DNA of 64,000 nt from a virus. Under the pieces are notes generated by a model that saw only the letters and a list, made by a program, of their open reading frames with translations, was not told the origin of the DNA and did not search any database. Within the stretch, counting starts at the first letter, position 1. Each line of letters starts with the position of its first letter. The position numbers and the translations under genes were made by a program. Location: the IMG/VR virus record IMGVR_UViG_3300006752_000025, positions 1 through 64,000 of that record, one strand, 5' to 3'. Shown here piece by piece: positions 36,901 through 64,000 of this stretch.

Positions 36901-38132
36901 AACGTGTAGGGTACGGTGAAGAAAGACCAGAGGAATTGGCATTGCTCGATCCTTTAGAAAGTTTAATCATGACAGTTACAACATCTGCACATGCAAATGG
37001 TAGTATACAAAGTTCTAATGTAACAGTGAACTCATTCTCAGCAACAGAAAGTAGCATGACACTTGATTCAGATATATTAGTACAAAAAGGTTCAAAAGTC
37101 ACAGTGACAAATGTTGACAATGGTAACAGCAATATAAAATACACATTAAATGCAGTAGTGTCGCAAGTAGCAGATGCAAGTATTCAATTAGAAGGCGCAT
37201 TCAATGATGTAAACTTTGCAAACTCGATATCAAATGTAAAAATAGTAACAGTACCTGTTAGTCCAAGTGCAAAAGAGGTAGTTTACAGAGTACACAATAA
37301 TTTACTTGGCGGAACTGATTATGTTCGTATTAGAGATAAGACCAGTACTTATCTTACATCAAATATTGAAATTAATAGTAGACAAATTAAACTTAACGAT
37401 GGTTCGTTCTTGCCTCAACCTACTTCCACAACACCAGGTATGGTTTGGGTAGGCTCCGAAAGAATACATTATGGAAGAAAAGTTGGCAATACACTAAGCA
37501 TGTTAACCAGAGGCGTATTTGGAACAAGTATAGAAACGCACACAGTTAACACACCAGTGTACAGTTCTCAGACATTAGATCACTTTAATGATCTCAATCC
37601 TGAATCAAATATTTGGCTTGACTTAGGCATAATTTATGATGAAATACGTGCTAAGTATGATGAAATACAAGCAGGATTAGATGGAGTGTTAGGCACAGGT
37701 GATGATATCTATGATGCTTGGGACGCAATTGAAGCAGGAAATATTACAACAACAGTTGTAGATGCAGTAGTTAATAGTGCAAACAGTACAGTTGCAAATG
37801 TTACACTACAATCTAGCATGACATTATCAGTTGGTGAAGCAGTAAGATTAACAAATCAAAGCAATGCAAATGTATACGAAGTTGTAAGCATTACAGCAAT
37901 TAATGGTAATGATATTGAAATAGAAGCAAGTTATACTGATACATTAGATACAAACTTGTTTGTAGTAAACGCAACAATAGACTTCAAATCATTTGACTAC
38001 GGCGACCAAGCAGTAGATCAATTATGGGATGCCGCAGAAGTTATTAGTAATGTGTCATTAAGTTTAGCAGACAGAGCAAATGTAGACTTTAATAATCAAT
38101 ACAGTATTATGAAGTTCTTACATAACTTATAA
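27975..38132 (+). CDS. Giant baseplate-associated structural protein (3385 aa)
   Basis: It begins at TTG 27975, supported by GAGG 7 nt upstream and a late promoter just before; no ATG fits. No enzyme motif is seen. The N-terminal 400 residues are Trp/Tyr-rich (SWPGFELLFHDWQKL, KTYRGVSESDFETLEGPPTD). Residues about 485-540 hold a cysteine cluster (CLGTPLGSMYVG, TCSEALAHCLTLNAYWGGES, RCVELQ). GSGY units lie at about 1030-1120. Residues about 2238-2460 (VGKVWWDTSTVKYTWYEQGP, RAFPGSSITVCEWVES, KYGIAVRPRQTMF) strongly resemble a segment I recall from cyanophage giant structural proteins. The C-terminal quarter is beta-rich with repeated short N-A-T/S-N-x-T strands. It may stand in for part of gp7/gp8 by position; that is inference. 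Confidence 0.72.
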   Translation: MAVENYTTTDSIEIDSQVGNLNPYSWPGFELLFHDWQKLNGSDLNTGRSLTNFTSDLRELEELWGVWNSGNFATAQELADPTGYRKSLFEWTLTYTNPSQNPWTEIPAQNFFNNFRSVGFDFPTTRTINPIPIFNEDRTYVSQSNSREAWYKNFIKYSRLKDMGSLNFRQAVFRGYHNNNNTDYLQSTFKPANFFETIFNRDVKVQLLDRWADTILNADPYTQMPGMPAGISQRDYAFYELQLARILTGSFFNTSVFNDMSLARAEYISPAWIYENVEVGNPAYIPGAQNAFGSIGGKIQAGVGLSPIIPWTSEYWKQNGDLWRYMRAEYIKIWHESAQHKAFAYWHYKLNGKDWNKAISKTPMLKNSGQPGVGHYGLIYNAKGIEYNFVNRFTNWKTYRGVSESDFETLEGPPTDYERIYADFTDSENFDGSWTTVGSNYINTGSSSAESAPATRIYTKLTTEIPDTTVLPYEPEVSITGSKLGLSCLGTPLGSMYVGASDAEGRKPVTCSEALAHCLTLNAYWGGESQQDAINRCVELQKGNDTPLTNYNYKKGVVDDNASIKEKYFAAFNPEQLGSVKAGNNSPFYAKPYSGNKFIPSTAKAPKRIKLSELQEVGFSQELSTDRYVNQTTQRVSGGFVIPLAKKLTTIARESTPLQSYDANEEPWAKNLQNLLNLNKTSRTISYQPVKVGSQYYVNGQPVSNITSGTPKTEDSITVPFDDTPTIPTTSQPASPSPGFSATQEEDVFIPEPLEYAEPFDDIKYNNVQMLDITPLEFGPGGFLEPAGPPARVEFRAPVPSVTIPQGDLTGLSRGSELLLNGRKVIFRGNGVIDIATQVNCLRSGIRAEVSVGSDGGEEIVLSSCDGMPFNIANGCGSGKYKQVGDFHINRGFEQRADNHKTIAKTANATIFSANDVIGGTYPVTKGTQSSTKPYPQSYLKTELIDQGRSPFLSLRHTPDELDDPENATIDELLKAKYYDFDPDPNLERFVEYVPKEEELRAMGFKKGEAPNVWLPQVTETESNVSVYSTGGSGYAIGDRLRLVGGTPVQDPRGPLTMICIDSAGAGYTDPNYIQIVIDSSGNNGEGSGIGAAAVVRTLDENGGIASIELLNGGFGYDYNSPPEVTVIDYSPKVAVSETINDAWTPQLTVVPNTLYKVTREVQEFDVNGNATGTTEIFDKFVRSVRPATIGESHTIPIVSLNRNPDGSLTDNREDRGYGNADVGLGGMTSLQGVYWVDPDVEPHVRQAERARIVLNNNGLMNGLDIGEALRTQSYVEIGHYPISDDVTKILDANVTYANVFGNSGNANDTHHSLVLNNVDGIEVGDLVVNTTYDADEDRGDIDLANTTRWHGYVTSVDENTDTVVIELESNHWRKQAYDSTFTYSDPGDNSLDYKAGDTITFGHKRYTLFWVPKSLQIESLETPPTIGASEMIPGNTYTIKNRGFVDWRDYGCNEEKPPVGTTFVMTGDASAETSGAVYDDNYMVDSVIRKENDQYGAFNFSPYFFEIQHQTFVSGEAVNAVFPRHTRISIEARSTWITDYNTPPEYEQGVDWWTETVNPNMQKVPAKLSALIGIDPASLGVDRTGLADLLSPNAEMSADSKGMEGPLRVAKFIVNGIDDSGGITSLKCIDRGLYEIFPSDLTYGIPLEYDYEPIGFSGQITKTEPFLENFFSSKAKVLGIGDPSRNNIFYSDIEDSYNIIQGFSATIDNEIVEAGGKTGVDVHPEYAEGTVFNETGTLPEYGTNFKHPDWIKYPEFIYTGFPRDPNGTTEDKLKWVKYNGSPGAYDPSVFVLVDYEPLLTSWPTPPTDAKQWETFAEQAYNLGLLLRKEYAIEFDPNATIIDEDGNEVNNYGKYMKPKVVPGGTGARVFLTSQNVPNCNEKGTIKEQLNLPDVVQEINAPADIARRMRDAFSGVGYDPDDLNATIDDGRDIVPLTIKTSYPGIRVQSPTGDPQGPVEIPLGDYNVASYCIEGTIDVGGLSQNAATDLYKRKVQELIDSGQLGVLEADQIRALVGPDRNVSDDAVVMTMLCVDTVGRPPQPTTNGNDQAGNPINFERFPLNDNNSLFGDGDAESWMEVYEYDLQTLQGGNVFLTGSSNQVTPVMVFESKRFNDNNILAIGEEVDSQNIYVQEPKAWVDNFVSTEANISLDAMPGFIQGGWAYLEYGVPIRWQTELVDVDYIQNSIIYDPETGNKEFDLNLWDPFKGVLPGFMDNEIHYITDIDPVNYNSARTLFGKDQVGKVWWDTSTVKYTWYEQGPLEERAKNWGRAFPGSSITVCEWVESKSLPQNWTGDGTPRWTNQYVTERRLDTNGEYKQMYYYWVMNRTKVDNRSKRDLGRKVDTRTLARYIANPIGYGIKLLTAISNDTLVLSNVDKDIDQEVNLQVNINNSKNNEGINHTAWKLLRENDDSNKIPDFLIEKLIDSICGQDILGNMVPANNLSEIEKYGIAVRPRQTMFCDIKEARRLLVSKLNEILADTKLNTEYKNWNIGLSTNLNYVNTVNYYETIRVDEQTNQKIRYNDSYKPTYKVASIEEMDRLTDLPDATVVQVQYKNSRESKLFLYNAPLTQFDLVSIKDETIEFSDRVYIDEPNTGLALELREVLTALINNVFATNGRINEIFFELMKFAYLEQGELSWAFKTSYVYIEKEESDLIKFNGFKPDNFEKVLSYMEEVKPFSSKIREYKDGKKTPIDIIGQNALTDFDKPPYVDPITNSIRILDDFDREDSEIMRQHKRYVDYYKQRLEDMSTNPLRKVKSTLVFDRTNWRLTTSEWDKSNVTLSDSIGQNIANLNLLSNANITARTSTLVPANATIRATDRIFKYDQEVQNMFASEVNAYFNTANASANLNIIGNAELMSNMVEANRLNGTFALIKDKVGGNFRGEELDGYNFTTIPDDIYYTTEKITEFGYSSLPYDDNTDKDTSIIIDNEYGTTTVGTGDLTWDRIVELQEYEGVFKGNATIRRDGNIKEGFDGITFQRVGYGEERPEELALLDPLESLIMTVTTSAHANGSIQSSNVTVNSFSATESSMTLDSDILVQKGSKVTVTNVDNGNSNIKYTLNAVVSQVADASIQLEGAFNDVNFANSISNVKIVTVPVSPSAKEVVYRVHNNLLGGTDYVRIRDKTSTYLTSNIEINSRQIKLNDGSFLPQPTSTTPGMVWVGSERIHYGRKVGNTLSMLTRGVFGTSIETHTVNTPVYSSQTLDHFNDLNPESNIWLDLGIIYDEIRAKYDEIQAGLDGVLGTGDDIYDAWDAIEAGNITTTVVDAVVNSANSTVANVTLQSSMTLSVGEAVRLTNQSNANVYEVVSITAINGNDIEIEASYTDTLDTNLFVVNATIDFKSFDYGDQAVDQLWDAAEVISNVSLSLADRANVDFNNQYSIMKFLHNL

Positions 38133-50274: not shown

Positions 50275-50308
50275 AAAAGCCAGTAATTACACTTACTGGC
50301 TTTTTTTT
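50275..50308 (+). terminator. Strong intrinsic terminator after the fibre cluster
   Basis: AAAAGCCAGTAA (50275-50286) and TTACTGGCTTTT (50293-50304) pair perfectly over 12 bp with a 6-nt loop, and the run of T continues to 50308. It separates virion genes from the following accessory operon. Confidence 0.92.
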
Positions 50309-51668: not shown

Positions 51669-51842
51669 ATGGCTAAAAATAGTAAACCAGACTTAGGCGA
51701 TCGTATTATACATAAAGAGCCAGCATTCAACAGAGAAAATGAAGGCGAAGTAATACAGTTGTTAGCCATGCAGTTTGTTTACAGAACAGACAACGGTAGT
51801 GATCGTTTTTGTTTGTTCAAGGAAGATTGGAAAAAAGTATGA
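51669..51842 (+). CDS. Small hypothetical protein (57 aa)
   Basis: MAKNSKPDLGDRIIHKEPAF..., 57 residues. AAGGA precedes the ATG by 3-7 nt, and the stop overlaps the next start (ATGA). The middle (GEVIQLLAMQFVYRTDNGSD) is beta-like, followed by RFCLFKEDWKKV. The overall shape suggests a small SH3-like barrel, but the family is not recognised. Position between two glycosyltransferase genes. Confidence 0.6.
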   Translation: MAKNSKPDLGDRIIHKEPAFNRENEGEVIQLLAMQFVYRTDNGSDRFCLFKEDWKKV

Positions 51843-52009
51843 GCGAAAAAAAAGAAAAAGAAGAATATGTAAGCATACGTGAAAATTGGAAAGATGTTAA
51901 TTGGGACTTAGTACAACGTATGCGATTTATGAATGCTGATGCCGAAATAGATCCTGAAGATAGTTATTCAAAAGGCAAAAGAAAGTTGAGGGACAATGGG
52001 AAAGATTAG
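51839..52009 (+). CDS. Small hypothetical protein (56 aa)
   Basis: Starts MSEKKEKEEYVSIRENWKDV. Very charged (Lys/Glu/Arg/Asp), with an NWDLVQRMRFMNADAEIDPE core; no known family. The ATG at 51839 overlaps the preceding stop (ATGA), which favours it over a GTG 30 nt upstream. It overlaps the next 36-aa frame by 14 bp. Confidence 0.6.
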   Translation: MSEKKEKEEYVSIRENWKDVNWDLVQRMRFMNADAEIDPEDSYSKGKRKLRDNGKD

Positions 52010-52106
52010 ACAATGGTTTAGGAATTGGTTTGATAAAGCAATAGAAAGAAGTATGCAACGTCAAGCAAACAAACTCTTTGCTAAAGGGCAAAACAAAGAT
52101 GAGTAA
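51996..52106 (+). CDS. Very small basic hypothetical protein (36 aa)
   Basis: MGKIRQWFRNWFDKAIERSM, then QRQANKLFAKGQNKDE. Basic, amphipathic helix with Trp/Phe on one face, so membrane-surface or protein binding is possible. GAGGG lies 3-8 nt before the ATG. It overlaps the previous frame by 14 bp and the next glycosyltransferase by 8 bp. Real coding is likely from the tight packing, but 36 codons prove little. Confidence 0.45.
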   Translation: MGKIRQWFRNWFDKAIERSMQRQANKLFAKGQNKDE

Positions 52107-52965
52107 AGGTTACATAGTAATAGCACAAAACACCAAGGAAACTAATTACTTGGAGCAGGCCTATGCACTTGCCTTAAACTTAAAGTTAACACAGAGCACT
52201 GTAAGCAATCTGTGCGTGTGCGTAGACGCACCAACACGTAAGTTACTAAGACAACGTCATGAGAACGTGTTTGATAAAATTGTAGACATACCTTGGAATG
52301 ACGATGCAGAAAAAGAAATAGATTGGAAAATTAATAACAAGTGGAAATACTTTCACATGACACCATATGATGAAACTGTAATACTTGATACTGATATGAT
52401 ATTTCCAACCGACGTTAGTCATTGGTGGAATATACTTAATCAAAAAGATGTTTGGGCAACAACCAATGTTAGAACATTTAGAGGTGATATAGCAAAAGGC
52501 AGTTACTATCGAAAAACATTTGAATTAAATAATTTGCCTAACATATATACTGCATTTTTTTATTTTAAGAAAAGTGAACTAGCGGCAGAGTTATTCACAA
52601 TGACAGAAATAATTTTTCAGCATTGGCAACGAATGTTTTACAAATACTTGCCCAAAGGCAAACCAGATTGGTTAAGTGCCGATGTTGCTTTTGCTTTAGC
52701 AATTAAGTTACTAGGAATAGAAAGCGAATGTACTAGAGAGAACATAGATGCTGTGCCTACATTTGTACACATGAAAAGTCATGTACAAAATATCAAAGGC
52801 GCAACCATAGCGGCAAATTGGGAAGACAGTATACCTACATACTACAAAACATATAATGATTTTAAGATAGGAAACTTCCAACAACTTTTACCATTTCATT
52901 ATGTACAAAAAGACTGGATGACAGAAAAACGAATTCAACAAATGGAGATAGATTATGGCAGATAA
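52099..52965 (+). CDS. Putative GT-A fold glycosyltransferase 2
   Basis: A 288-aa protein starting MSKGYIVIAQNTKETNYLEQ, related to the 50686 protein (same start of a Rossmann fold, same TPYDETVILDTDMIF with DxD at Asp97-Thr-Asp99). A C-terminal TFVHMKSHVQNIKGA has the His-x-K motif typical of the GT8 metal/substrate site. An upstream in-frame start would add seven residues but overlaps the 36-aa gene. ATG 52099 fits the 8-bp coupling better (ATGAGTAA). Substrate unknown. Confidence 0.75.
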   Translation: MSKGYIVIAQNTKETNYLEQAYALALNLKLTQSTVSNLCVCVDAPTRKLLRQRHENVFDKIVDIPWNDDAEKEIDWKINNKWKYFHMTPYDETVILDTDMIFPTDVSHWWNILNQKDVWATTNVRTFRGDIAKGSYYRKTFELNNLPNIYTAFFYFKKSELAAELFTMTEIIFQHWQRMFYKYLPKGKPDWLSADVAFALAIKLLGIESECTRENIDAVPTFVHMKSHVQNIKGATIAANWEDSIPTYYKTYNDFKIGNFQQLLPFHYVQKDWMTEKRIQQMEIDYGR

Positions 52966-53626
52966 TCAAATATCAGATGCGGCCCTTGCTAGAAAAAAAG
53001 CATTCTTACAAGCAAAAGAAGAAGCAGGTGGTGCTGAAAAATTAGCAAGCCAAGCAAAACAATATAAATTGTATTTTGACAAAGACGGTAATATTACTTG
53101 CTTCACAGCATCTGAGGTTGTTGTAAATCCAGATTGGGAAACATATGATTTCTCACAGGATCAATTAAAAATACTTATTGGCAAGGAAAAGACTATTAAT
53201 AAGTATCGTGTAAAGAAAGACCCTAACGTTGATAATTTATACAGTATTGAATTACGCCCTATAGAAAATCATGTTATAGATGCTAATGCAGATTTCTTAT
53301 TCAATGTAGAGCCTAGTGATTCTAAAATTTGGGATATCAAAGTTAAACTCACAGAAAAACATATTAGAGTATTTTTAAGTGACAGTGTTAAAGAAGAGTA
53401 TGCTGATGTTTATCCTATAAGTGCTACACGTAACGGTGTAAGACTATGTAAGTTTTATATCACTGCAAAAGATGATCCGCATGTACTTTTCTATTACACA
53501 ACAATAAGTCTTGCAGAACTTCTCACCGACGAGTATGCACAAAGGCAATTACCAAGCGATCTAAGATCGTGTAGTGTGTTCACAGTAAAATTATTTGATA
53601 CCTATGTAAGAAATGATAAAGATTAA
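52955..53626 (+). CDS. Hypothetical protein (223 aa)
   Basis: Not recognised. Residues 1-40 are an Ala/Lys-rich helix (DAALARKKAFLQAKEEAGGA). The rest is predicted beta-rich (YKLYFDKDGNITCFTASEVV, then WDIKVKLTEKHIRVFLSDSV, and CKFYITAKDDPHVLFYYTTI). A strand-rich protein of this kind could be structural; it has no catalytic motif. GGAG lies 7-10 nt before the ATG, overlap of 11 bp with the glycosyltransferase and 14 bp with the next gene. Marine T4-like phages often carry a similarly patterned protein beside glycosyltransferases, but I cannot name it. Confidence 0.65.
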   Translation: MADNQISDAALARKKAFLQAKEEAGGAEKLASQAKQYKLYFDKDGNITCFTASEVVVNPDWETYDFSQDQLKILIGKEKTINKYRVKKDPNVDNLYSIELRPIENHVIDANADFLFNVEPSDSKIWDIKVKLTEKHIRVFLSDSVKEEYADVYPISATRNGVRLCKFYITAKDDPHVLFYYTTISLAELLTDEYAQRQLPSDLRSCSVFTVKLFDTYVRNDKD

Positions 53627-54992
53627 CTCTGTTCAAACTCACTATAAAGTCAAAACTAATTCTAAACACAGGCTGAGATGGACATTAACAGATATAATGT
53701 TAGCAGATCCGGCAGAGCCTTATCACGATTCACGTGATCCTTTAGAGCGTGGTGTGACGCAGTACCCAAATCATTTGGTTCCCATAAACTTGCAGACCCA
53801 TGCTCTAAGGAACACATTTTTAGAAATGTGTAAAGGAAAAATTGAATTCAAACGACATGCTGACGTACATGACATCAATGATCCGGACGCCTACTATGAG
53901 TTTGATTTAACAACATTCTTTCATTACAACCCAATTGAACTAAAACGTATTTTAAGAGATCACAAAGTAATAATTTGTGACTTTGAAGATGGCTTAGGTG
54001 GCAGAGACATATCTGGAACCGGAACGTGGCTACAACATATTATATCGTTGAGAGTTGTACCCAGAGAAGTTATATGCCTTACAAGTAATATAACTAAATT
54101 TGAACACAAACAATTGAATGTAAAGTCTGTGCCTCTACCAATTTGGATGATCATAACAATTGGTTGTACAGGATTTTTGACTCATGCATATTCTAACAAC
54201 AATGCAAAACAAAAATATTTAGAGATGCTTGATCGAGATAAAAAGTTTGCGTTATGTCCTAATTTCAAACCACGAGCACCACGTTTAGCATTTATTGCTG
54301 AGTTGCATAAAAGAAATTTATTAGACACAATGGACTGGAGTTTAATAGGGTACAACCAAGCATTAATGAATCCGTTTACAGATGACAATGCAGACTACTG
54401 GAAGTTTTATGAAAAGAGGACATCAGTAGAGCAGTGGAAACATGATATGCAGATAAATCGAATGCCTGGTAATAACAATGACAGTTTTAATCAAGTAGCA
54501 GATGAATACACTGATTACTACTACGAAACAGTAAATAAATTTTTGAGCAGTGTAGATCTGCCAAAGTTATTGCCAGACAATGATAAACACCCTTCCAACA
54601 TTATAAGTATTTCTGAACATCTTGTAGGTAAATATTACTGGCATATAATTAATGAAACAATGCTAGATCATAAAGTTGCACTTATAAGATACGGTATAGT
54701 AACAGAAAAAACTTTTAAGGCAATGATTGCCGGGGCCATGCCATTAATATGCGGACCTAACGGCACAGATGATTACTTAGAAGGATTAGGATTTAAGATA
54801 CACAGAACTGATATAGACGAATACAAAAACATAGGAAAGTCTTTGAGATTGGCAGATTATTATCAAGACATCCAAGAACGTCAACAGTTACCTGATAAGA
54901 ACGATGTTATGCATAATGCAGAATTACTACTTGACAAAAAATTTGTTTGTAGTACAATAATAGAACCGTTAATGGAAAATTGTAATGGCTAA
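53613..54992 (+). CDS. Putative glycosyltransferase, fucosyltransferase/GT10-like C-terminal motif
   Basis: A 459-aa protein. Its clearest feature is near residues 363-400: VTEKTFKAMIAGAMPLICGP, then a GTDDYLEGLGFKI element. This is the donor-binding 'TEK-x-F-K-x-x-x-x-x-x-P ... LGF' block of GT10-like fucosyltransferases and related phage transferases of GT-B type. The N-terminal half (KVIICDFEDGLGGRDISGTG, KNNAKQKYLEML further on) is divergent. The sugar cannot be read from sequence. The gene overlaps both neighbours (14 and 8 bp). Confidence 0.65.
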   Translation: MIKINSVQTHYKVKTNSKHRLRWTLTDIMLADPAEPYHDSRDPLERGVTQYPNHLVPINLQTHALRNTFLEMCKGKIEFKRHADVHDINDPDAYYEFDLTTFFHYNPIELKRILRDHKVIICDFEDGLGGRDISGTGTWLQHIISLRVVPREVICLTSNITKFEHKQLNVKSVPLPIWMIITIGCTGFLTHAYSNNNAKQKYLEMLDRDKKFALCPNFKPRAPRLAFIAELHKRNLLDTMDWSLIGYNQALMNPFTDDNADYWKFYEKRTSVEQWKHDMQINRMPGNNNDSFNQVADEYTDYYYETVNKFLSSVDLPKLLPDNDKHPSNIISISEHLVGKYYWHIINETMLDHKVALIRYGIVTEKTFKAMIAGAMPLICGPNGTDDYLEGLGFKIHRTDIDEYKNIGKSLRLADYYQDIQERQQLPDKNDVMHNAELLLDKKFVCSTIIEPLMENCNG

Positions 54993-55989
54993 GACAGACG
55001 TAACTGAACTAGATATATTTTATATAAGTTATGATGAACCCAACTGTGAAGAACATTGGGCAGACTTATTAAACAAAGTACCGTGGGCAAAACGTGTACA
55101 TGGAGTTAAAGGTTTTGATGCGGCACACAAAGCATGTGCAGAGCAATCAGAAACTGAACGTTTTATCACTGTAGATGGAGATAACATAGTCATGGACGAC
55201 TTCTTCGAACAGGAGTTGGACTTCCCAGAAACAGATCATGACGGCAATGATATATCAGAAAGTATATTCAGTTGGAACGGCAAAAACTTACTTAATGGAT
55301 TAGTGTATGGTAATGGTGGACTAAAGTGTTGGCCTACCGAGTACACTAAAACAATTAATACACATGAGTCTTCAGACGATGAGGAAGGCATGGAGTTTTG
55401 TTGGAAGTTAAACTACATTCAACTTAACGATACATTCTCAGAGGTACACCAAACAGCATCACCATTCCAAGCATTTAGAGCAGGCTTCCGTGAAGGTGTT
55501 AAAATGAGTTTGGATCAAGGCACAAAGGTACCACGTGATCGTTTTATAGATCGTATTTGGTATGGTAATTATAATAGATTACAGACATGGTGTAACATTG
55601 GCAGTGATGTAGAGAATGGCTTGTGGGCTATCTACGGAGCAAGACTTGGCTGTGAGATGACAGTGCTAGACGATTTTGATTGTAATAGTATTTCAGATTA
55701 CGATTGGTTTAAGGCTTTCTTTTATCAAGACGTTGCACCACAGTTTGAAGGTTTATCTGATCAAACATGCAGATACACAAAAATTGAATGGGATAGCAAT
55801 ATGCTACACAAAGAGATATGCAGTATAGGCCGTACATTGAATGACGAAATAAATGAGATGATGTTGTTTGATCCGGACCCAAAAATGTGTAAATTCTTTA
55901 AGAAAACTTATGTCAATCCAAAACGTTGGGGTGTAATGATTAGAGAAAAACAAATACAAGACTTGTTAGAAAAAGGACTGATTCAATGA
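54985..55989 (+). CDS. Putative glycosyltransferase-like protein (334 aa)
   Basis: Starts MAKTDVTELDIFYISYDEPN. The N-terminal part resembles GT2-type transferases: YISYDEPNCEEHWADLLNKV, then a helical AHKACAEQSETERFITVDGD with DxD at Asp64-Gly-Asp66. The middle has NGLVYGNGGLKCWPTEY, which fits the acceptor loop with a GNGG motif. The C-terminal half is helical and lacks a second recognisable domain. Similar proteins in marine phages are often annotated glycosyltransferase; I infer the function from the DxD and context. GGAAAA precedes the start. It overlaps a small membrane protein gene (ATGA). Confidence 0.65.
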   Translation: MAKTDVTELDIFYISYDEPNCEEHWADLLNKVPWAKRVHGVKGFDAAHKACAEQSETERFITVDGDNIVMDDFFEQELDFPETDHDGNDISESIFSWNGKNLLNGLVYGNGGLKCWPTEYTKTINTHESSDDEEGMEFCWKLNYIQLNDTFSEVHQTASPFQAFRAGFREGVKMSLDQGTKVPRDRFIDRIWYGNYNRLQTWCNIGSDVENGLWAIYGARLGCEMTVLDDFDCNSISDYDWFKAFFYQDVAPQFEGLSDQTCRYTKIEWDSNMLHKEICSIGRTLNDEINEMMLFDPDPKMCKFFKKTYVNPKRWGVMIREKQIQDLLEKGLIQ

Positions 55990-56126: not shown

Positions 56127-56368
56127 TGGATAAGTTGGTTGCATCGCTAAAGAAGGGTGTAGTCACTGTGGTGTTTGAAAAAATAGACACAGGAGAAATC
56201 CGAACTATGCCTTGTACATTAAACAGTGAACTAATGGATAAACCGTTTGCTGTTAATAATTATGATGGCAAGAGTGATACAATTATCATGTGGGCTCTCG
56301 ATAAAAAAGCATGGCGAGATGTCAGAGTCAACACAATTAAGGAATGGTACGAAGGCTATCCTAAATGA
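56126..56368 (+). CDS. SH3-like small protein of the WYL_2/Sm-like family (80 aa)
   Basis: MDKLVASLKKGVVTVVFEKI..., 80 residues. The order 'L-K-x-G-V-V-x-V-x-F-x-K ... R-T-M-x-C-T-L-N-x-E-L ... W-D-L-x-x-x-A-W-R-x-x-R-V-x-x-I-K' matches a phage family (PF10902, WYL_2/Sm-like, as I recall) found in many T4-like phages with unknown function. It has the small beta-barrel fold often used for nucleic-acid binding. ATG 56126 is chosen because it overlaps the preceding TAA (TAATG); a GTG at 56114 is less likely. Overlaps the next gene by ATGA. Confidence 0.75.
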   Translation: MDKLVASLKKGVVTVVFEKIDTGEIRTMPCTLNSELMDKPFAVNNYDGKSDTIIMWALDKKAWRDVRVNTIKEWYEGYPK

Positions 56369-57105
56369 AACTGTTTGCTAATATCAGTGTAGGACATGAG
56401 AACAGCAAGTCAGTATTAGATGCTAGGATTGTGGCCGCGGCTCAGTGCAATGCTGATGCAGTAGTTCTCACAAAGACAACACCACGTTTATTAATACCAG
56501 ATGAAAAAAAGTATGTAGCAATACAAAGCAAATGGGGTACAAAACCTTATATAGAAGTTGCTAAACTAAGTGAACTTAGCCAAGAAACAACTGAACATGT
56601 AACTAATCTTTGCGAATCTATAGGCATACAATTAATTTGGAGTGTAACTGATCAAGAAGCATTACAATTTGTAAAAGATCACAGCAAACTAACAGACCTT
56701 AAAATACACAATGATGCTATAGACATAGAAGAATTATTACCTGTGTGTTACAGCACAATCAACTACACATATTTTCCACACAAACATGTGGAATTAGTAA
56801 ATCATTACTATCAACGCAAACGTAAAAAATTTGCACTTTATCACACCACTGAAGGCTTTGCACCTGAAATAGAAGAATTAAAATTATCTGTGTTGGATAA
56901 AATTAAACATCTAAACTACGATACAGGATATGAAAGCAAAGAAGCAGGTATCTTTCCTGCAATGGCAACTATGTATAAAGGCATAGATTATTTAGAAGCA
57001 TACCTTGGAGAAGGCAGTGATAACATGCCTGGTGTGCTAACACCTCACCAATTGTTTGATTTGTGGAACAGTTGTAATATATTACTTACTGCGAATACGG
57101 AATAG
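56365..57105 (+). CDS. NeuB/sialic-acid-synthase-like TIM-barrel protein, short
   Basis: A 246-aa protein whose order of elements follows the NeuB/PseI N-terminal TIM barrel. LFANISVGHENSKSVLDARI corresponds to 'AEIGxNHNGS...A', AAAQCNADAVVLTKT to 'AGADAVKFQT', KLSELSQETTEHVTNLCESI to the 'ELS.E....L...C' helix, and LTDLKIHNDAID to 'KIaS.di'. Family members condense PEP with an N-acetyl-hexosamine to make a nonulosonic acid. Here the barrel is about 90 residues short of the usual 340. The catalytic-region Glu and the Lys of KFQT do not align clearly. No SAF domain follows. Activity is therefore doubtful, and a partner or regulatory role is possible. Ends with a 20-bp convergent overlap with the minus-strand gene. 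Confidence 0.55.
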   Translation: MKLFANISVGHENSKSVLDARIVAAAQCNADAVVLTKTTPRLLIPDEKKYVAIQSKWGTKPYIEVAKLSELSQETTEHVTNLCESIGIQLIWSVTDQEALQFVKDHSKLTDLKIHNDAIDIEELLPVCYSTINYTYFPHKHVELVNHYYQRKRKKFALYHTTEGFAPEIEELKLSVLDKIKHLNYDTGYESKEAGIFPAMATMYKGIDYLEAYLGEGSDNMPGVLTPHQLFDLWNSCNILLTANTE

Positions 57106-57580
57106 CAGTACTGGTAAAACTTTTACCTAAGTAATAACTACCTTGTATTGTGAATTCTTTGGACCCAACAATAGCATTAGCAGGCACACTGCCAGCATAC
57201 ATGTATGTAAACTTTGGATTAAGCCATTGAGGAGGCAGTGCAGGATCTTGTCTTAACTGTCTAGGATCAATTGCACGTGGATTGATCTCGTATAACACAC
57301 CTCTACCTTCAGACTTATCCAGCATGTCATGATCAATACCAGGATTATCATCGCCTACCATCTCTACTGCTGTTCTTGGATTGTCTGCTAAAAATACTAC
57401 ACCTTCTGTGCAACCTTTGTATAATTTACACACACCGTTGTTTAATATGCCTTGTTGCATGATAGATTCATGATTCATAGCAGGACTTGCATGATATAAC
57501 ATGCTTCTTGGAGGAATAGGTAACTCAGTACGTTTGCTTTTCCAGTTCTGAAATTTTCCAACTATATCTTCTATGAGCAT
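57086..57580 (-). CDS. ADP-ribosyltransferase-like protein (KptA/ART fold)
   Basis: A 164-aa minus-strand protein. Residues 28-65 (LYHASPAMNHESIMQQGILN ... GVVFLADNPRTAV) follow the ART-fold order seen in Tpt1/KptA-like and DarT-like proteins. There, the His of 'YH-x-S/T' (His30) sits at the NAD site and 'SIxxxGL' is the next helix. LYEINPRAIDPRQLR and YAGSVPANAIVG resemble the later strands ('V..IPP..I'). Similar small ART-like proteins occur in phages with unknown targets. It is the only gene on this strand in the right half. Its ATG begins 5 nt after a GATAAATA box, so its mRNA should be leaderless and late. The 3' end overlaps the NeuB-like gene by 20 bp. Activity, NAD use and target are not shown. 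Confidence 0.55.
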   Translation of the reverse strand: MLIEDIVGKFQNWKSKRTELPIPPRSMLYHASPAMNHESIMQQGILNNGVCKLYKGCTEGVVFLADNPRTAVEMVGDDNPGIDHDMLDKSEGRGVLYEINPRAIDPRQLRQDPALPPQWLNPKFTYMYAGSVPANAIVGSKEFTIQGSYYLGKSFTSTAIPYSQ

Positions 57581-57622: not shown

Positions 57623-57630
57623 GATAAATA
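57623..57630 (+). promoter_or_regulatory. T4-type late promoter (GATAAATA)
   Basis: GATAAATATATG 38 nt before the ATG of the UDP-sugar dehydrogenase gene. The leader of about 33 nt contains AAGGAGAAAG. With the minus-strand box at 57586 it forms a back-to-back pair separated by 29 nt. Confidence 0.85.
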
Positions 57631-57668: not shown

Positions 57669-58991
57669 ATGGCCTCAATCGGATTCATCGGAGTTGGCAA
57701 GTTAGGGCAAGCCTGCGCCGAGATGGTAGCCGAGGTCCATGATGTTGTAGGTTATGATGTAGAGCCAAGAGAACCAGAAAATTTTACAATGGTTCCCAAT
57801 TTGGTTGATGCAGTAAAAGGACAAGATATTGTTTTTGTTGCTGTACAGACACCTCATGATCCACAATATGATGGCAAAGCACCTACCAGCCATTTGCCTA
57901 ACAAAGACTTTGATTACACACTAGTAAAAAAAGTTCTGTCAGAGGTAAATGAAGTTGCAACCAAAGAGCAACTGGTGGTGCTAATATCTACGGTATTGCC
58001 CGGAACAGTAAGAAGAGAATTAGTGCCCCTTATTCCAAATGCACGTTTTGTGTACAACCCATACTTAATTGCTATGGGCACTGTAAAGTGGGATATGGTA
58101 AATCCAGAAATGGTAATGATTGGTACTGATGATGGAAGTGAAACAGGTGACGCAAAAGAACTTGTGGACTTCTATAAAACAATAATGCAAAATGATCCAC
58201 GTTACGTTATAGGCACGTGGGACGAATGTGAATGTATCAAAGTTTTCTACAATACATTTATATCAGCAAAAGTAAGTCTAGTAAACATGATTCAAGACGT
58301 TGCAGAAAAGCAAGGTAACATCAACGCAGAAGTTGTATGTGATGCACTTGCTACCAGTGACAGACGTATTATGGGACCAGGTTATATGAAACCAGGTATG
58401 GGAGACGGAGGTGCTTGTCACCCACGTGATAACATTGCCCTGCGTTGGATGGCAGATAACTTAGGACTAGGTTACGACTTGTTTGATGCTGTAATGCTAT
58501 CAAGAGAAGTACAAGCAAAGAACATGGCTGATAGCATGATAGAAATAGCCACAGCAGGTGCAACTATTACACCACCAATGCCTGTGGTAATTGTAGGTAA
58601 AGCATACAAACCTCTTGTACCATATGAAGCAGGTTCTAGCAGTATGTTGGTTGGACACTATGTAGAAGAAGCAGGTGTACAATTATATTACTATGACGAA
58701 GTTTGTGGCGAAGTACCACCACAGTCAGTGTTAGAAAAGCCAGCAGTATATCTACTTGCACATAATCCTGGAGTCACTTATGGTGACCAATTAGATTTTG
58801 TAAAAGGTTGGTATAATGGAAAGCATCGTGTAACAGAAGCAGACGAAGCTCTAACAGTTGCTACAGCAAATGGCACTGAGCTACAGTTTGCACCTGGAAG
58901 TACAGTTATCGACCCATGGAGGAAGATTCCTGCAATAGAAGGTGTACAAGTTGTTCATTATGGAAACACAAGAGCAGGCGCACTAAGATAA
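57669..58991 (+). CDS. ugd: UDP-glucose/GDP-mannose-type 6-dehydrogenase
   Basis: A 440-aa UDP-glucose/GDP-mannose dehydrogenase family protein, which oxidises a nucleotide sugar to the uronic acid with two NAD+. The Rossmann start is IGFIGVGKLGQACAEM, VAVQTPHDP follows, and STVLPGTVRRELVP is the STVxPGT element. YNPYLIAMGTVKWDMVNPEM replaces the usual 'PEFLxEG'. The substrate-binding region ends GDGGACHPRDN, with the catalytic Cys at residue 250 (family: GGSCFPKD). The C-terminal NAD-like domain has VVIVGKAYKP and ends normally. All catalytic landmarks appear present, but the PYLIAMG variant suggests a substrate other than UDP-glucose. Preceded by its own late promoter and AAGGAG 9 nt before the ATG. 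Confidence 0.85.
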   Translation: MASIGFIGVGKLGQACAEMVAEVHDVVGYDVEPREPENFTMVPNLVDAVKGQDIVFVAVQTPHDPQYDGKAPTSHLPNKDFDYTLVKKVLSEVNEVATKEQLVVLISTVLPGTVRRELVPLIPNARFVYNPYLIAMGTVKWDMVNPEMVMIGTDDGSETGDAKELVDFYKTIMQNDPRYVIGTWDECECIKVFYNTFISAKVSLVNMIQDVAEKQGNINAEVVCDALATSDRRIMGPGYMKPGMGDGGACHPRDNIALRWMADNLGLGYDLFDAVMLSREVQAKNMADSMIEIATAGATITPPMPVVIVGKAYKPLVPYEAGSSSMLVGHYVEEAGVQLYYYDEVCGEVPPQSVLEKPAVYLLAHNPGVTYGDQLDFVKGWYNGKHRVTEADEALTVATANGTELQFAPGSTVIDPWRKIPAIEGVQVVHYGNTRAGALR

Positions 58992-59033: not shown

Positions 59034-60458
59034 ATGAGTGATCGAGTAGATCGAATACGTGAAACAAATGAGATGATGACCCAAGAGGTCAGTGAAACAT
59101 TTTGTTTAGCAAAATGGCATCACACAACAATATACATGCACAGAGGACAAACACACAGTTGTTATCATCCTAAGCCGCATGATATTCCTCTTAGTGAATT
59201 AAAATACGATCCTAGTGTATTACACAATACACCACAAAAGATTGAGGAACGTATACAGATGTTTAACGGCGAAAAGCCAAGTGGATGTCAGTATTGTTGG
59301 AACGTTGAAGAAATGGGCGGCGATCACGTTAGTGATAGGCACCAACGTAATAACAGTATTTACACTGAAGAGAGACTGAACGAAATATTATATAATCCAC
59401 CTGATTATAAAATTAATCCTGAGTACATTGAGATTGCATTCAGTTCAGAATGTAACTTCAAATGTGGTTACTGTCACCCAATGCACAGTAGCAGTTACTA
59501 TCAAGAAATTAAAAAGCATGGTCCTTACGACATGGTTAAGAACCATCGTAATGACATTGATTGGTTTGAAATTTATGACGAGGATTCACCTTATGTAGAA
59601 GCATGGTGGAAGTGGTGGCCTGAAGTAAGTAAGACATTAAACATCTTGCGTATTACAGGAGGCGAACCACTGCTACACAAAACTACATGGAGACTGTTTG
59701 AGGAACTACAACAAAATCCTAAGCCACAATTAGAAATCAATATCAATACAAACTTAGGATATACAAGTAGACATGTTGAAAGACTTGTTGAAGTTATGAA
59801 TGATTTACTAGGTAATGGCAAAATCAAACAATTCAAGATGTTTACCAGTATGGACACATGGGGAGATCGTGCAGAGTATTTACGTACAGGACTAAACATA
59901 AACTTGTGGGAAAAGAATCAAGATATATATGTTCGCGGTGTTAAAAGCCATATCACACACATGGTTACATTTAATATTCTCAGTGTTACCAGTTTTGTTG
60001 ACTACTTGAAAAAAGTATTAGAATGGAGAGAGCGTTACGAATATGTAATACCTAACAACTTAGGTTCGGATGAGATGGTTCGTAAGATACGTTTTGATAC
60101 ACCTTACTTGAAAGAACCATTACAATATGATATGCACATATTACCCAAAGAACAGTTTACTCCATACTTTGATAAGATACTTGATTTTATCAGAGACAAC
60201 GTAGACGAAGAAGATAGAACAAAGTTCTCAGAAATTGAATACGAAAGATTCCGAAGAGTACGTGATTACTTTGTTAACGAACAATATGATGAAGATAAAG
60301 TTATGCGTGGCAGAATTGATTTTTACAATTGGTTCAACGAATACGACAAACGTAGAGGCACAAACTTTTTAGAAACATTCCCAGAAATGGCAGACTTTTA
60401 TCATATGTGTGGAGAGTTAGCAAGTGACGACGACTTAATAATGACTCGAAACATATGA
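59034..60458 (+). CDS. Radical SAM protein 1 with N-terminal twitch/SPASM-like motif
   Basis: A 474-aa radical SAM enzyme. The iron-sulfur motif CNFKCGYC (CX3CX2C) is at Cys140-144-147 and ITGGEPLL is the SAM-binding 'GGE' motif. In such enzymes the cluster reduces S-adenosylmethionine to a 5'-deoxyadenosyl radical. Residues 1-115 precede the core and hold FCLAKWHHTTIYMHRGQTHSC (CX13GX4C) and GCQYCW (CX2C), the cysteine pattern of twitch/SPASM auxiliary-cluster domains, usually found after the core. It is the most divergent of the four tandem copies and the longest at its C-terminus. Starts with ATG behind AGGA (9 nt). Substrate unknown: sugar or peptide. Overlaps the next gene by ATGA. Confidence 0.85.
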   Translation: MSDRVDRIRETNEMMTQEVSETFCLAKWHHTTIYMHRGQTHSCYHPKPHDIPLSELKYDPSVLHNTPQKIEERIQMFNGEKPSGCQYCWNVEEMGGDHVSDRHQRNNSIYTEERLNEILYNPPDYKINPEYIEIAFSSECNFKCGYCHPMHSSSYYQEIKKHGPYDMVKNHRNDIDWFEIYDEDSPYVEAWWKWWPEVSKTLNILRITGGEPLLHKTTWRLFEELQQNPKPQLEININTNLGYTSRHVERLVEVMNDLLGNGKIKQFKMFTSMDTWGDRAEYLRTGLNINLWEKNQDIYVRGVKSHITHMVTFNILSVTSFVDYLKKVLEWRERYEYVIPNNLGSDEMVRKIRFDTPYLKEPLQYDMHILPKEQFTPYFDKILDFIRDNVDEEDRTKFSEIEYERFRRVRDYFVNEQYDEDKVMRGRIDFYNWFNEYDKRRGTNFLETFPEMADFYHMCGELASDDDLIMTRNI

Positions 60459-61648
60459 TCGAAAACAATAACACATTCTGCATATTACCATGGATACATA
60501 TTCATCACAGCCCTGAGGGCCATGTGTTACCATGTTGTATATCTGATATGTCCTACAAACACAAGATAGAAAACGTAGGCACAATAGATGAGCAAATGAA
60601 TTCAGAGTTTATGAAAGAGCTCCGACTCAATATGGTTGCTGGTATTAAAACAGATGTGTGTAAGAATTGTTATAAAAGTGAAGAGTCAGGCTTCAAAAGT
60701 TTTAGACTAGAAGCAAACGATATGTACAAGAAGCATATGAAGTTAATAGAGGACACAGACATAGATGGCACTATCAAGCATTTCAAATTGAGATATTTTG
60801 ATATACGTTTCAGTAATGTGTGTAACTTTAAGTGCAGAAGTTGCAATGCAGGCTATTCTAGCCAGTGGGCATTAGAGGATAAACAGCAAGGTATACTTGG
60901 AGTCGAGGACAAAGAAAACAACGCACACAACGCATTACACAGCGTCTTAGAGCATATTCCGCACATGGAAAAGGCCTATTTTGCTGGTGGTGAACCTCTG
61001 GTTACTAACGAGCATTATGAGATTATTAAGGCCATGATAGACAATGGTCGCACAGATATAGAATTAATATACAACACCAATATCAGCAAACTGAAATTCA
61101 AAAACAATGACATTGCAGAGCTATGGAGTAACTTTGAAAAGCCAATTGGTGTGTATGCAAGTTTAGATCATTATGGTATGCGTGGAGAGTATATTAGAAC
61201 TGGTACCATATGGAATCAAATTGAAACTAACTATAGAACATTATTAAACATGAGCAATGTACAATTAAATATCACAACCACTGTGAGTGCATTGAACTAT
61301 GTTAGTTTACCTAATTTTATCATGCACATGTATAACAACGATATGTGGCCGCAAGGACATTGGCAACTTAATCCTGTGTTCCAGCCAACTTATCTCAGCA
61401 TACACAGCATACCAGAATCATTAAAAGAACAAGGCAGAAGGAATTGGGAGAGCATGTGTGAAATTCTTAAAGACGACATAGAGCCAGAAGTGTATACTGC
61501 TTTTAGAAACTTCCCAGACGTAGTTGAAAGTGAGCACACTTGGGAGTTGAATAAATCAGCATTTATAGAAAATACAAATCGTTTAGATCAAATCAGAGGT
61601 GAAGACTTTGGTATGGTGTTCCCAGAACTAAAGGAGATGGTTGCATGA
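60455..61648 (+). CDS. Radical SAM protein 2 with N-terminal twitch/SPASM-like motif
   Basis: A 397-aa radical SAM enzyme. Cys123-X3-Cys127-X2-Cys130 (CNFKCRSC) is the SAM cluster and FAGGEPLV the GGE motif. The N-terminal 110 residues fit a twitch-type auxiliary domain: Cys9-X12-Gly22-X4-Cys27 (CILPWIHIHHSPEGHVLPCC), then Cys69-X2-Cys72 (CKNC), and in between MKELRLNMVAG. Closely related to the third and fourth copies (same FxxLRYFDIRFSN before the cluster, same SLDHYGMRGEYIRTGT near the middle). ATGA overlaps on both sides. I recall 'twitch domain-containing radical SAM' proteins in marine phages; no substrate is known to me. Confidence 0.87.
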   Translation: MIENNNTFCILPWIHIHHSPEGHVLPCCISDMSYKHKIENVGTIDEQMNSEFMKELRLNMVAGIKTDVCKNCYKSEESGFKSFRLEANDMYKKHMKLIEDTDIDGTIKHFKLRYFDIRFSNVCNFKCRSCNAGYSSQWALEDKQQGILGVEDKENNAHNALHSVLEHIPHMEKAYFAGGEPLVTNEHYEIIKAMIDNGRTDIELIYNTNISKLKFKNNDIAELWSNFEKPIGVYASLDHYGMRGEYIRTGTIWNQIETNYRTLLNMSNVQLNITTTVSALNYVSLPNFIMHMYNNDMWPQGHWQLNPVFQPTYLSIHSIPESLKEQGRRNWESMCEILKDDIEPEVYTAFRNFPDVVESEHTWELNKSAFIENTNRLDQIRGEDFGMVFPELKEMVA

Positions 61649-62937
61649 AGTGCCCAACATCAGGCAGTGAAGGCTTTTGCGTATACCCTTTTATAAGTGT
61701 GTACAGACAGCCTAACGGTAAAGTAGCACCTTGTTGTGTAGCACAGTTCAGCGAAGAAAAAATTGACAGTCCGCATCTCAACGACTACATCAACTCAGAT
61801 TACTTGAAGCAGTACCGCAACGAAATGTTACAAGACAAATTGCCAGAAGGTTGCCGTGTGTGCAAAGGACAAGAAGAAAGCACACAAAACAGTCCACGCA
61901 TAAACATGAACCGCGAGTATGCTGAATACATAGATGAGATGCGTGATATGACTGATGCCAGTGATGGCACAATAGATGCAGAACGTTTCCGCATGAGATA
62001 CTTTGATATGCGTACTTCAAATATATGTAACTTCAAATGCAGAAGTTGTAACCAAGAGTACAGTTCACAGTGGCAAGCAGAGAATGATCGCACTGGATAC
62101 GATAGCAGTAAAGGATTACGTATTGTTGACTTGACACCAAACATGCCTACCACAGTCATAGACGAAGTAGCAGAAAAGTGTGAGGACATACAAACTGCAT
62201 ATTTTGCAGGTGGCGAACCTCTGATAATGGACGATCATTACAAACTGTTATACGCATTAGCAGAACGTAATCCTGATGTGAGACTGAGATACAATACCAA
62301 TTTAAGTAATTTGAATTACAAGAATCATGATTTGCTAGACTTATGGAGTAAGTTTAACAACAAAGTAGAAGTGGTAGCAAGTATAGATCATTATGGACCA
62401 CGTGCAGAATATATACGTGCAGGTACGAAATGGGATAAGCAATTAGAGAACTTGCACACAGTAGCAAAGTTTGACAATGTAGACTTAACGTTAAGTGCAG
62501 TGGTCACAGTGTTTAACTTTTTAACATTAGATCAATTGATACGTTATCTCTATCAAGAAGAATTAATAGTGCCGGGAGGCATAGTAGATGAGGGCTTAGG
62601 AGAAGCAGGTATTAAGATAGACAGCATACTGGGCGTGTACCCTGCACAAGATCCAGCATGGCTTAGTGCTAAAGCATTACCACCTGACCTCAAGGCAGAA
62701 GGCATACAACGTGTGGAGTATGTGATCAAGCAATTAGAAGAATGGGGTTTCAATGGGGACCACGACACTGGATCACAAGGCACACAACTACAACACATAC
62801 TGAACTTTGTGAAAAGCGAAGACACATGGGAGCAACAGAAGTTAAACTTCTGGGAAGACAACCATAGACTAGACGAAGTACGTGGTGAAAACTTTGTACA
62901 AACGTTTCCGGAATTGGAAAGGATGATGAGAGGCTAA
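61645..62937 (+). CDS. Radical SAM protein 3 with N-terminal twitch/SPASM-like motif
   Basis: A 430-aa paralogue of the 60455 protein. Cluster motif CNFKCRSC begins at Cys128; FAGGEPLI follows. The N-terminus has CVYPFISVYRQPNGKVAPCC (CX12GX4C) and CRVC (CX2C), preceded by only ten residues. Differs from copy 2 by an insert near residues 310-345 (VPGGIVDEGLGEAGIKIDSI, then LGVYPAQDPAW), so the substrate pocket may differ. It ends with the shared RLDEVRGENFVQTFPELERM motif (copy 2: RLDQIRGEDFGMVFPELKEM). Coupled to its neighbours by ATGA (5') and TAATG (3'). Confidence 0.87.
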   Translation: MKCPTSGSEGFCVYPFISVYRQPNGKVAPCCVAQFSEEKIDSPHLNDYINSDYLKQYRNEMLQDKLPEGCRVCKGQEESTQNSPRINMNREYAEYIDEMRDMTDASDGTIDAERFRMRYFDMRTSNICNFKCRSCNQEYSSQWQAENDRTGYDSSKGLRIVDLTPNMPTTVIDEVAEKCEDIQTAYFAGGEPLIMDDHYKLLYALAERNPDVRLRYNTNLSNLNYKNHDLLDLWSKFNNKVEVVASIDHYGPRAEYIRAGTKWDKQLENLHTVAKFDNVDLTLSAVVTVFNFLTLDQLIRYLYQEELIVPGGIVDEGLGEAGIKIDSILGVYPAQDPAWLSAKALPPDLKAEGIQRVEYVIKQLEEWGFNGDHDTGSQGTQLQHILNFVKSEDTWEQQKLNFWEDNHRLDEVRGENFVQTFPELERMMRG

Positions 62938-64000
62938 TGAGCGAATACATACACATTAAAGACCTAGACAAAGATCATTTGCTTACAGAAAGCAAAGTGT
63001 TCTGTATGTTTCCGTGGGTACACTTGAATGCAACACCCAAAGGCGATATATACCCATGCTGTAGCAATGACTACAGTAACCCTATAGGAAATACAGCGGA
63101 TATGACGCTCACAGAAGCGTTTAACAGCGACTTTATGAAGGAGTTGAGGTTGAACATGCTGGATGGTGAACCCAGCAAAATATGCGACTTCTGTTACAAT
63201 CATGAGAAAGCATCGCCTCACAGTTTTAGAACATACAGCATAGACAACTTTCAGCAACACTTTGATGACGTTATCAGTACTACACAAACAGATGGTACTG
63301 TGGATGAATTCAAAATGCGTTACTTTGATATACGTTTTAGTAATATATGTAACTTCAAATGCAGAAGTTGTGGCACAGAATTCAGTAGTCAATGGGCATT
63401 AGAGGACAAGAAAACATTTAATCCAGATGGTCCTGTGATAATACACGTGGATCAAGACAGAGGAGATGTGCTGAAAGAGATCATTGATCAGGTAGATCAC
63501 ATTGAATTAGCATACTTTGCAGGTGGAGAACCGTTGATTACTCCGGAACATTATGTTATACTAGAGGAACTAATACGCCGAGGTAAAACAGACACAGTGT
63601 TACGTTACAACACAAACGCCAGCACAGTGAATTACAAGCAGTATGACATATTCGAACTGTGGAGCCACTTCGACAAGATAGAGCTCAGTTGCAGTATAGA
63701 TCATTACGGTGAACGTGCAGAAGTCATGAGACACGGTACTGATTGGGGTAGAGTAGAGAATAACCTTAAAACATTTAGGAGTAAACCTAATTTAGATTTT
63801 CAATTAAACACAGTTTTCTCAATATATAATTACATGACATTAACTGAATTTTATGAATATATGATTAATGCAGGATTAATAGACAAAAAGAATGACTGGT
63901 ATCACAGTTTGTATTTGTTGGTTAATCCAGGATATTTGAGTGCTAGAGCATTACCAAAAAGCATGAAAGCCATAGCAAAGAATCGTGTTAAGTCACTATA
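62937..64000 (+). CDS. Radical SAM protein 4 with N-terminal twitch/SPASM-like motif (3' end outside window)
   Basis: Begins at ATG 62937 (TAATG overlap with copy 3) and is still open at the window edge after about 354 codons. Sequence: MSEYIHIKDLDKDHLLTESK, then CMFPWVHLNATPKGDIYPCC (CX12GX4C), CDFC (CX2C) near residue 80, the FDIRFSNICNFKCRSC cluster starting at Cys138, and FAGGEPLITPEHYVI. The SIDHYGERAEVMRHGTDW segment matches copies 2 and 3. It is the third close paralogue in the row. The true length and any further genes of the operon lie downstream. Confidence 0.85.
   Translation, partial: MSEYIHIKDLDKDHLLTESKVFCMFPWVHLNATPKGDIYPCCSNDYSNPIGNTADMTLTEAFNSDFMKELRLNMLDGEPSKICDFCYNHEKASPHSFRTYSIDNFQQHFDDVISTTQTDGTVDEFKMRYFDIRFSNICNFKCRSCGTEFSSQWALEDKKTFNPDGPVIIHVDQDRGDVLKEIIDQVDHIELAYFAGGEPLITPEHYVILEELIRRGKTDTVLRYNTNASTVNYKQYDIFELWSHFDKIELSCSIDHYGERAEVMRHGTDWGRVENNLKTFRSKPNLDFQLNTVFSIYNYMTLTEFYEYMINAGLIDKKNDWYHSLYLLVNPGYLSARALPKSMKAIAKNRVKSL

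What the first reader, a model, noticed from the sequence alone, without database searches (positions are those of the whole stretch)
59034..64000. Four tandem radical SAM genes with permuted (N-terminal) auxiliary-cluster motif
Seen: four overlapping genes each have CX12-13GX4C plus CX2C before the CX3CX2C radical SAM motif, at nearly the same distance. In known twitch/SPASM enzymes (for example sactisynthases or BtrN) the auxiliary cluster follows the core. Copies 2-4 are close paralogues and copy 1 is divergent. Inference: either a substrate chain with several modification steps or a hetero-oligomer. Being behind a late promoter with a nucleotide-sugar dehydrogenase, they may modify a glycan or a virion peptide. 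This is the best candidate here for an undescribed phage system.
Basis: partly seen in the sequence, partly recalled or inferred. Interest (0 to 1): 0.78.

Follow-up and report, generated by a model that had tools for sequence, protein, structure and literature searches.

The report
Phage radical-enzyme cassette for glycan tailoring
A giant-type phage carries five back-to-back genes for iron-sulfur "radical" enzymes of an already named family, set in a conserved late operon with sugar-building genes next to its tail-fibre genes; most likely they make an unusual sugar coat, but what they actually modify has never been tested.

Summary
Four overlapping genes (59034-64000, the fourth running to record base 64184) each carry CX12-13GX4C + CX2C ahead of CX3CX2C. 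A fifth copy (64181-65470) and a sixth, conventionally ordered radical SAM gene (65449-66453) follow. The "permuted" layout is not undescribed: all five are full-length members of NCBIfam NF033640 (N_Twi_rSAM, N-terminal twitch; 307-372 bits, cut-off 170). All seven cysteines are invariant in 296 viral relatives.

New here is the system. In dozens of uncultivated phage contigs the order R1-(R2/Rx)-R4-R5-R6 recurs, under purifying selection, downstream of tail-fibre genes and glycosyltransferases. It is followed by further glycosyltransferase-like, SGNH-like and nucleotide-sugar genes. The unit starts at a conserved late-promoter-like GATAAATA before the UDP-glucose-dehydrogenase gene. An unrelated array in cultured Vibrio phage K566 interleaves four such enzymes with GT8 glycosyltransferases.

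Best explanation (about 0.6): sequential radical tailoring of a phage-made glycan. A RiPP system is disfavoured: no leader-binding domain, no room for a precursor gene, one auxiliary cluster. Substrate, reaction and target (virion or host surface) are inferred. Novelty: new variant of a known kind.

The parts
57623..57630 (+). GATAAATA, late-promoter-like motif heading the UGD-rSAM unit
   Evidence: 8 of 8 copies in the window lie just upstream of gene starts; same motif upstream of UGD or R1 in L007, L088, L089, L091; none in 58000-68954
57669..58991 (+). nucleotide-sugar (UDP-glucose type) 6-dehydrogenase
   Evidence: phrog_9148 E 1.5e-96, PF00984/PF03721
59034..60458 (+). R1: N-twitch radical SAM protein, separate deep clade
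   Evidence: NF033640 307 bits; AlphaFold2 pLDDT 92.6; orthologues at up to 79%
59103..59297 (+). R1 N-terminal twitch cysteines C24, C43, C85, C88
   Evidence: invariant in 143 of 143 R1-type sequences
59451..59474 (+). R1 core CX3CX2C (C140/144/147)
60455..61648 (+). R2: N-twitch radical SAM protein (overlaps R1 by 4 bases)
   Evidence: NF033640 353 bits; PF13186 SPASM on residues 9-73; AlphaFold2 pLDDT 92.3
60479..60670 (+). R2 N-terminal twitch cysteines C9, C27/28, C69, C72
60821..60844 (+). R2 core CX3CX2C (C123/127/130)
61645..62937 (+). R3: N-twitch radical SAM protein
   Evidence: NF033640 344 bits; PF04055 and PF13186
61678..61863 (+). R3 N-terminal twitch cysteines C12, C30/31, C70, C73
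62026..62049 (+). R3 core CX3CX2C (C128/132/135)
62937..64000 (+). R4: N-twitch radical SAM protein, continues to record base 64184
   Evidence: full protein NF033640 372 bits; PF13186 36 bits and PF04055 41 bits
63003..63194 (+). R4 N-terminal twitch cysteines C23, C41/42, C83, C86
63348..63371 (+). R4 core CX3CX2C (C138/142/145)
50275..50304 (+). intrinsic-terminator-like hairpin closing the tail-fibre unit; followed at 50323 by TATAAATA
52078..52965 (+). GT8-like (glycogenin-like) glycosyltransferase, family GT3 in this report
   Evidence: profile of 17 homologues hits glycogenin, E 9e-6
53613..54992 (+). GT10-like glycosyltransferase by eye (VTEKTF...GLGFK motif); no profile hit
   Evidence: sequence; inference only
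54985..55989 (+). g2: conserved partner with VDGD (DxD-like); a g2-family gene directly precedes R1 in 58 of 77 non-redundant loci
   Evidence: no fold assignment
56365..57105 (+). NeuB-family (sialic/pseudaminic acid synthase-like) protein
   Evidence: PF03102 48 bits, cut-off 22

Best explanation
R1-R5 are N-terminal-twitch radical SAM enzymes (NF033640) that, with R6, act one after another or as neighbouring partners to tailor a carbohydrate made by the surrounding glycan genes of a T4-like jumbo phage. SHOWN: family membership, invariant cluster motifs, conserved gene order, tight gene overlap, purifying selection, conserved late-promoter-like motif, neighbouring GT8-like and nucleotide-sugar genes downstream of tail-fibre genes. 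INFERRED FROM FAMILY KNOWLEDGE: the core cluster reductively cleaves SAM to a 5'-deoxyadenosyl radical that takes H from a substrate carbon; the four-cysteine auxiliary cluster is fully ligated as in BtrN and so carries away or returns an electron (dehydrogenation or epimerisation) rather than binding substrate. INFERRED FROM CONTEXT: the substrate is a sugar (nucleotide-sugar, glycolipid or growing glycan), R1 does a common step, and R2-R5/R6 are a later-added extension that diversifies the product. LEAST CERTAIN: the glycan decorates tail/virion proteins or the host surface and bears on host recognition.
For: NF033640 matches over full length for all five; 7 of 7 cysteines and GGE invariant in 296 sequences. 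Gene order R1-(R2/Rx)-R4-R5-R6 in dozens of contigs; dS saturated or above 2 against the window's closest relatives with pN 0.14-0.39, and dN/dS 0.03-0.13 between the close pair L009/L091. Of 52 non-redundant R1 loci with long flanks, 51 have a GT1- or GT3-cluster gene, 39 a UGD or epimerase-family gene and 36 an SGNH-like gene within eight genes. Late-promoter-like motif conserved upstream of UGD or R1. Independent array in cultured Vibrio phage K566: rSAM-GT8-rSAM-rSAM-GT4-like, then rSAM-GT8 on the other strand, branching apart from the window array. Bacterial homologues lie near GDSL hydrolases (7 of 115 neighbours scanned), SDR, DegT aminotransferase and carbamoyltransferase genes. Top fold match of both models is BlsE, an enzyme of a glucuronate-derived nucleoside pathway, but the match is to the radical core only.
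Against: No neighbour is a characterised enzyme; GT1 and g2 have no profile match to a solved glycosyltransferase and SGNH is read by motif in the phages. Twitch/SPASM enzymes also act on peptides (SkfB), and PMC6231123 warns that function cannot be read from sequence similarity in this subfamily. The cobalamin radical SAM protein sometimes downstream scores best, below cut-off, against a RiPP C-methyltransferase family. Fold similarity to any solved structure is modest (TMq 0.38 or less).
Confidence: 0.6

Rival explanations
1. The enzymes modify a peptide or virion protein (RiPP-like maturation or tail-fibre residue modification such as epimerisation, cross-link or formylglycine); the glycan genes are merely neighbours or glycosylate the same protein.
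For: Twitch/SPASM domains occur in peptide maturases (PMC6231123); very large tail proteins (5027 and 3385 aa ORFs) lie upstream in the same late region; a B12 radical SAM protein related to RiPP C-methyltransferases is in some loci.
Against: No RRE: only 8-23 residues precede the first twitch cysteine and no winged helix appears in the models. Median gaps of -16 to +1 bases between R genes leave no precursor gene. The two short conserved ORFs of about 56 aa (51669-52009) look like ordinary small phage proteins, not leader-core peptides. One auxiliary cluster motif, not two.
Confidence: 0.2
2. The copies form one hetero-oligomeric enzyme in which some subunits are catalytic and others carry electrons or bind substrate.
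For: Fixed gene order and overlaps; R5 and R6 fused into a 749-aa ORF in L122.
Against: Every copy keeps all seven cysteines and GGE, so none looks like a non-catalytic subunit; R1 stands alone in most loci and R1-R5, R1-R4-R5 or R1-R5-R5 subsets occur; the fusion is a single contig and could be an assembly indel.
Confidence: 0.12
3. The set takes part in DNA or nucleotide hypermodification (glycosylated or radical-modified bases) rather than a surface glycan.
For: Phage glycosyltransferases can glycosylate DNA (cited in PMC12619734); the radical core resembles viperin and QueE families weakly; one bacterial array has a QueC-like gene nearby.
Against: Late, tail-fibre-linked position and a GATAAATA promoter-like motif shared with structural genes; no base-hydroxymethylase, kinase or base-transferase gene seen among the neighbours scanned.
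Confidence: 0.06

Closest known systems
NCBIfam NF033640 N_Twi_rSAM (twitch domain-containing radical SAM protein)
   Same: N-terminal twitch cysteines followed by the radical core; full-length matches 307-372 bits over a 170-bit cut-off for all five copies
   Different: a family name without a tested function or pathway; the conserved viral multi-enzyme cassette is not part of its definition
BtrN / MoaA / SkfB twitch enzymes
   Same: twitch motif CX9-15GX4C-gap-CX2C with four cysteines; hairpin-then-helix order in the models
   Different: their twitch domain is C-terminal to the core (PMC6231123); here it is N-terminal; substrate unknown
Host recognition cluster of pelagimyophages (PMC7029224)
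   Different: there only mentioned; no N-twitch layout, ordered multi-enzyme set or late operon described. The window's phage is nearest to jumbo phages (PA5oct, SCTP-2, Atu_ph07, 121Q) by its baseplate protein
Vibrio phage K566/K567 radical SAM-GT8 cluster (OZ196521, OZ196593)
   Same: several NF033640-type proteins, two over the cut-off and two just under, alternating with GT8 glycosyltransferases
   Different: about 23% identical to the window's copies, own branch of the tree; different neighbours

Membership tests
NF033640 N_Twi_rSAM | full-length profile match over the curated cut-off | tested here: met
   307, 353, 344, 372 and 338 bits, cut-off 170
Radical SAM superfamily | CX3CX2C core motif plus GGE in a partial TIM barrel | tested here: met
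   motifs invariant; R3, R4 and R1 (30.8 bits over neighbouring pieces) pass PF04055, R2 and R5 do not reach it alone; models match radical SAM cores
Twitch domain | CX9-15GX4C-gap-CX2C, four cysteines | tested here: met
   CX12-13GX4C, then CX2C about 40 residues on; PF13186 over cut-off on the N-termini of R2-R5
Twitch domain | beta-hairpin then helix holding the cysteines | tested here: inconclusive
Twitch domain | binds one auxiliary Fe-S cluster | not testable with these tools
   needs EPR or a structure
SPASM domain (two auxiliary clusters) | seven-cysteine motif | tested here: not met
   only four conserved N-terminal cysteines (plus the doubled CC in R2-R5)
RiPP radical SAM maturase | RRE (PqqD-like) domain and adjacent precursor peptide | tested here: not met
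   8-23 residues before the twitch; no intergenic space in the cassette; no precursor-like small ORF
Carbohydrate-acting radical SAM enzymes (BtrN, AprD4, BlsE type) | activity on a sugar | not testable with these tools
   context only

The most novel reading that the evidence does not exclude
A phage-encoded, late-expressed radical assembly line of five or six serial N-twitch/radical SAM enzymes builds a chemically unusual (deoxy, keto or epimerised) glycan that is not the host's own. The cassette spreads and diversifies by in-phage duplication next to tail fibres, and the same kind of array has arisen separately in Vibrio phages and in Bdellovibrionota.
Probability: 0.35. Interest if true: 0.75.

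Novelty: new variant of a known kind. Interest (0 to 1): 0.52.

Why it matters
N_Twi_rSAM has a name but no known reaction. A conserved, ordered viral set, with a cultured phage carrying a parallel array beside GT8 enzymes, gives a concrete way to find that reaction. If the product is a radical-tailored glycan on the virion or cell surface, it would link oxygen-sensitive radical chemistry to phage host recognition in abundant uncultivated aquatic phages, and would correct metabolic-gene annotations such as ahbD that rest on the same Pfam domains (PMC9301287).

Tried and rejected
Undescribed permuted domain: rejected, NF033640 already covers it. RiPP with nearby precursor: no room, no RRE. Viperin-like antiviral: only weak core similarity, far below cut-off. 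Fused R4-R5 suggested by long open frames: in-frame adjacency with a stop between, not a fusion. Solved-structure profile searches for GT1 and g2 gave nothing. Bacterial neighbourhoods gave no single theme beyond GDSL hydrolases and other radical SAM genes. Named phages hold no R1 orthologue in 50,697 records. Direct cysteine-distance measurement was not possible because model coordinates are not exposed. Tool errors: wrong coordinates; too long; wrong frame; handle needed.
Full report
WHAT IS THERE. The window is bases 1-64000 of a 68,954-base virus record. Four + strand ORFs at 59034-60458, 60455-61648, 61645-62937 and 62937 onward overlap by one to four bases. Fetching the rest of the record shows the fourth ends at 64184, a fifth copy of the same layout at 64181-65470 (R5), a sixth radical SAM gene at 65449-66453 with its extra cysteines C-terminal (R6), then a GT10-like ORF (66434-67699, by eye) and an SGNH-like ORF (67636-68565, by eye).

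NOT UNDESCRIBED AS A DOMAIN LAYOUT. All five copies match NCBIfam NF033640, N_Twi_rSAM, over its full length (307-372 bits, curated cut-off 170). PF13186 (SPASM) matches the N-termini of R2-R5 over its cut-off and PF04055 the cores of several. The published twitch definition (PMC6231123) places the domain after the core and describes BtrN as fully ligated by four cysteines; here the four-cysteine motif is complete but in front.

CONSERVATION. In 296 full-length viral relatives all four N-terminal and all three core cysteines and GGE are invariant. Against the window's closest relatives synonymous sites are saturated or nearly so while pN is 0.14-0.39; between the close pair L009/L091 dN/dS is about 0.03-0.13 for R1, R2, R4 and R5. 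AlphaFold2 models of R1 and R2, built from alignments of window and viral-contig sequences, reach mean pLDDT 92.6 and 92.3, pTM 0.89, with helix, hairpin and helix in the order expected for a twitch domain.

NEIGHBOURHOOD. Gene order across the viral loci is [tail genes] GT3 GT3 x g2 R1 (R2 or Rx) R4 R5 R6 GT1 SGNH/UGD/epimerase. Of 77 non-redundant R1 loci 58 have g2 directly upstream; of 52 with long flanks 51 have a GT1- or GT3-cluster gene, 39 a UGD or epimerase-family gene and 36 an SGNH-like gene within eight genes. GT3 is GT8/glycogenin-like by profile (E 9e-6); the epimerase cluster matches NDP-sugar 4,6-dehydratases/epimerases below cut-offs; UGD and NeuB come; GT1 and g2 have no profile match and are called glycosyltransferase-like from motifs only. 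These loci are related by descent, so the counts show conservation, not independent events.

REGULATION. GATAAATA occurs eight times in the window, always just upstream of a gene start although only 2% of the window is intergenic. One copy heads the UGD-R1-R5 unit, it recurs upstream of UGD or R1 in four close relatives (L007, L088, L089, L091), and none follows within 58000-68954. A terminator-like hairpin at 50275-50304 followed by TATAAATA separates the tail-fibre unit from the glycan genes.

ORIGIN. In a tree with bacterial copies R2, R3, R4 and Rx form a viral clade (support 0.995), so they look like in-phage duplicates; R5 lies among bacterial sequences with weak support and R1 is a separate deep clade. 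Vibrio phage K566 carries four relatives in a branch of their own, interleaved with GT8 enzymes. Two Bdellovibrionota genomes carry 19-20 NF033640 matches and two others 8-9, while five other bacterial genomes carry one each. By its baseplate protein the window's phage is nearest to jumbo phages such as PA5oct, SCTP-2, Atu_ph07 and 121Q at 33-41% identity, so the record is probably a fragment of a much larger genome.

MECHANISM. Shown: family, intact motifs, ordered late operon, glycan-type neighbours, tail linkage. Inferred: radical H-abstraction from a sugar carbon, with the fully ligated auxiliary cluster as electron conduit; serial steps by R1-R6. The peptide alternative is disfavoured by the absent RRE, the absent precursor space and the single auxiliary motif, but is not excluded. 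In the papers that could be searched, PMC7029224 is the only report found of radical SAM cassettes in a phage host-recognition cluster; subscription literature was not searchable.

Noticed in passing
L206, L210, L151, L207 (bacterial loci): Bdellovibrionota genomes hold 8-20 NF033640 genes each, many in dense arrays with other radical SAM genes, one cobalamin-dependent; function unknown.
   Followed up: partly
window 868, 7983, 27949, 38157, 45972, 49247, 57623 (+) and 57586 (-): GATAAATA just upstream of gene starts in 8 of 8 cases: probable late-promoter motif of this phage, a variant of T4's TATAAATA.
   Followed up: yes
L122:6879-9128: R5 and R6 fused into one 749-aa ORF; natural fusion or an assembly indel.
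   Followed up: partly
L026:7069-9285 and 34 other genes in cluster g13: B12-binding radical SAM protein (about 740 aa) near the cassette, adding a further radical enzyme to the region.
   Followed up: partly
window 57086-57580 (-): Lone minus-strand gene with its own GATAAATA; by eye resembles an ADP-ribosyltransferase/2'-phosphotransferase-type fold (YHASP...); no profile hit.
   Followed up: no
window 12845-27928 and 27975-38132: Giant ORFs of 5027 and 3385 aa between baseplate and tail-fibre genes; not analysed.
   Followed up: no
phages collection: R1 orthologues are abundant in IMG/VR but absent from 50,697 cultured or deposited phage records, so this phage group is essentially uncultured.
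   Followed up: partly
L032:13864-14772 and cluster 33: Looks by eye like an amidinotransferase in the same loci; Pfam and NCBIfam gave no hit.
   Followed up: partly
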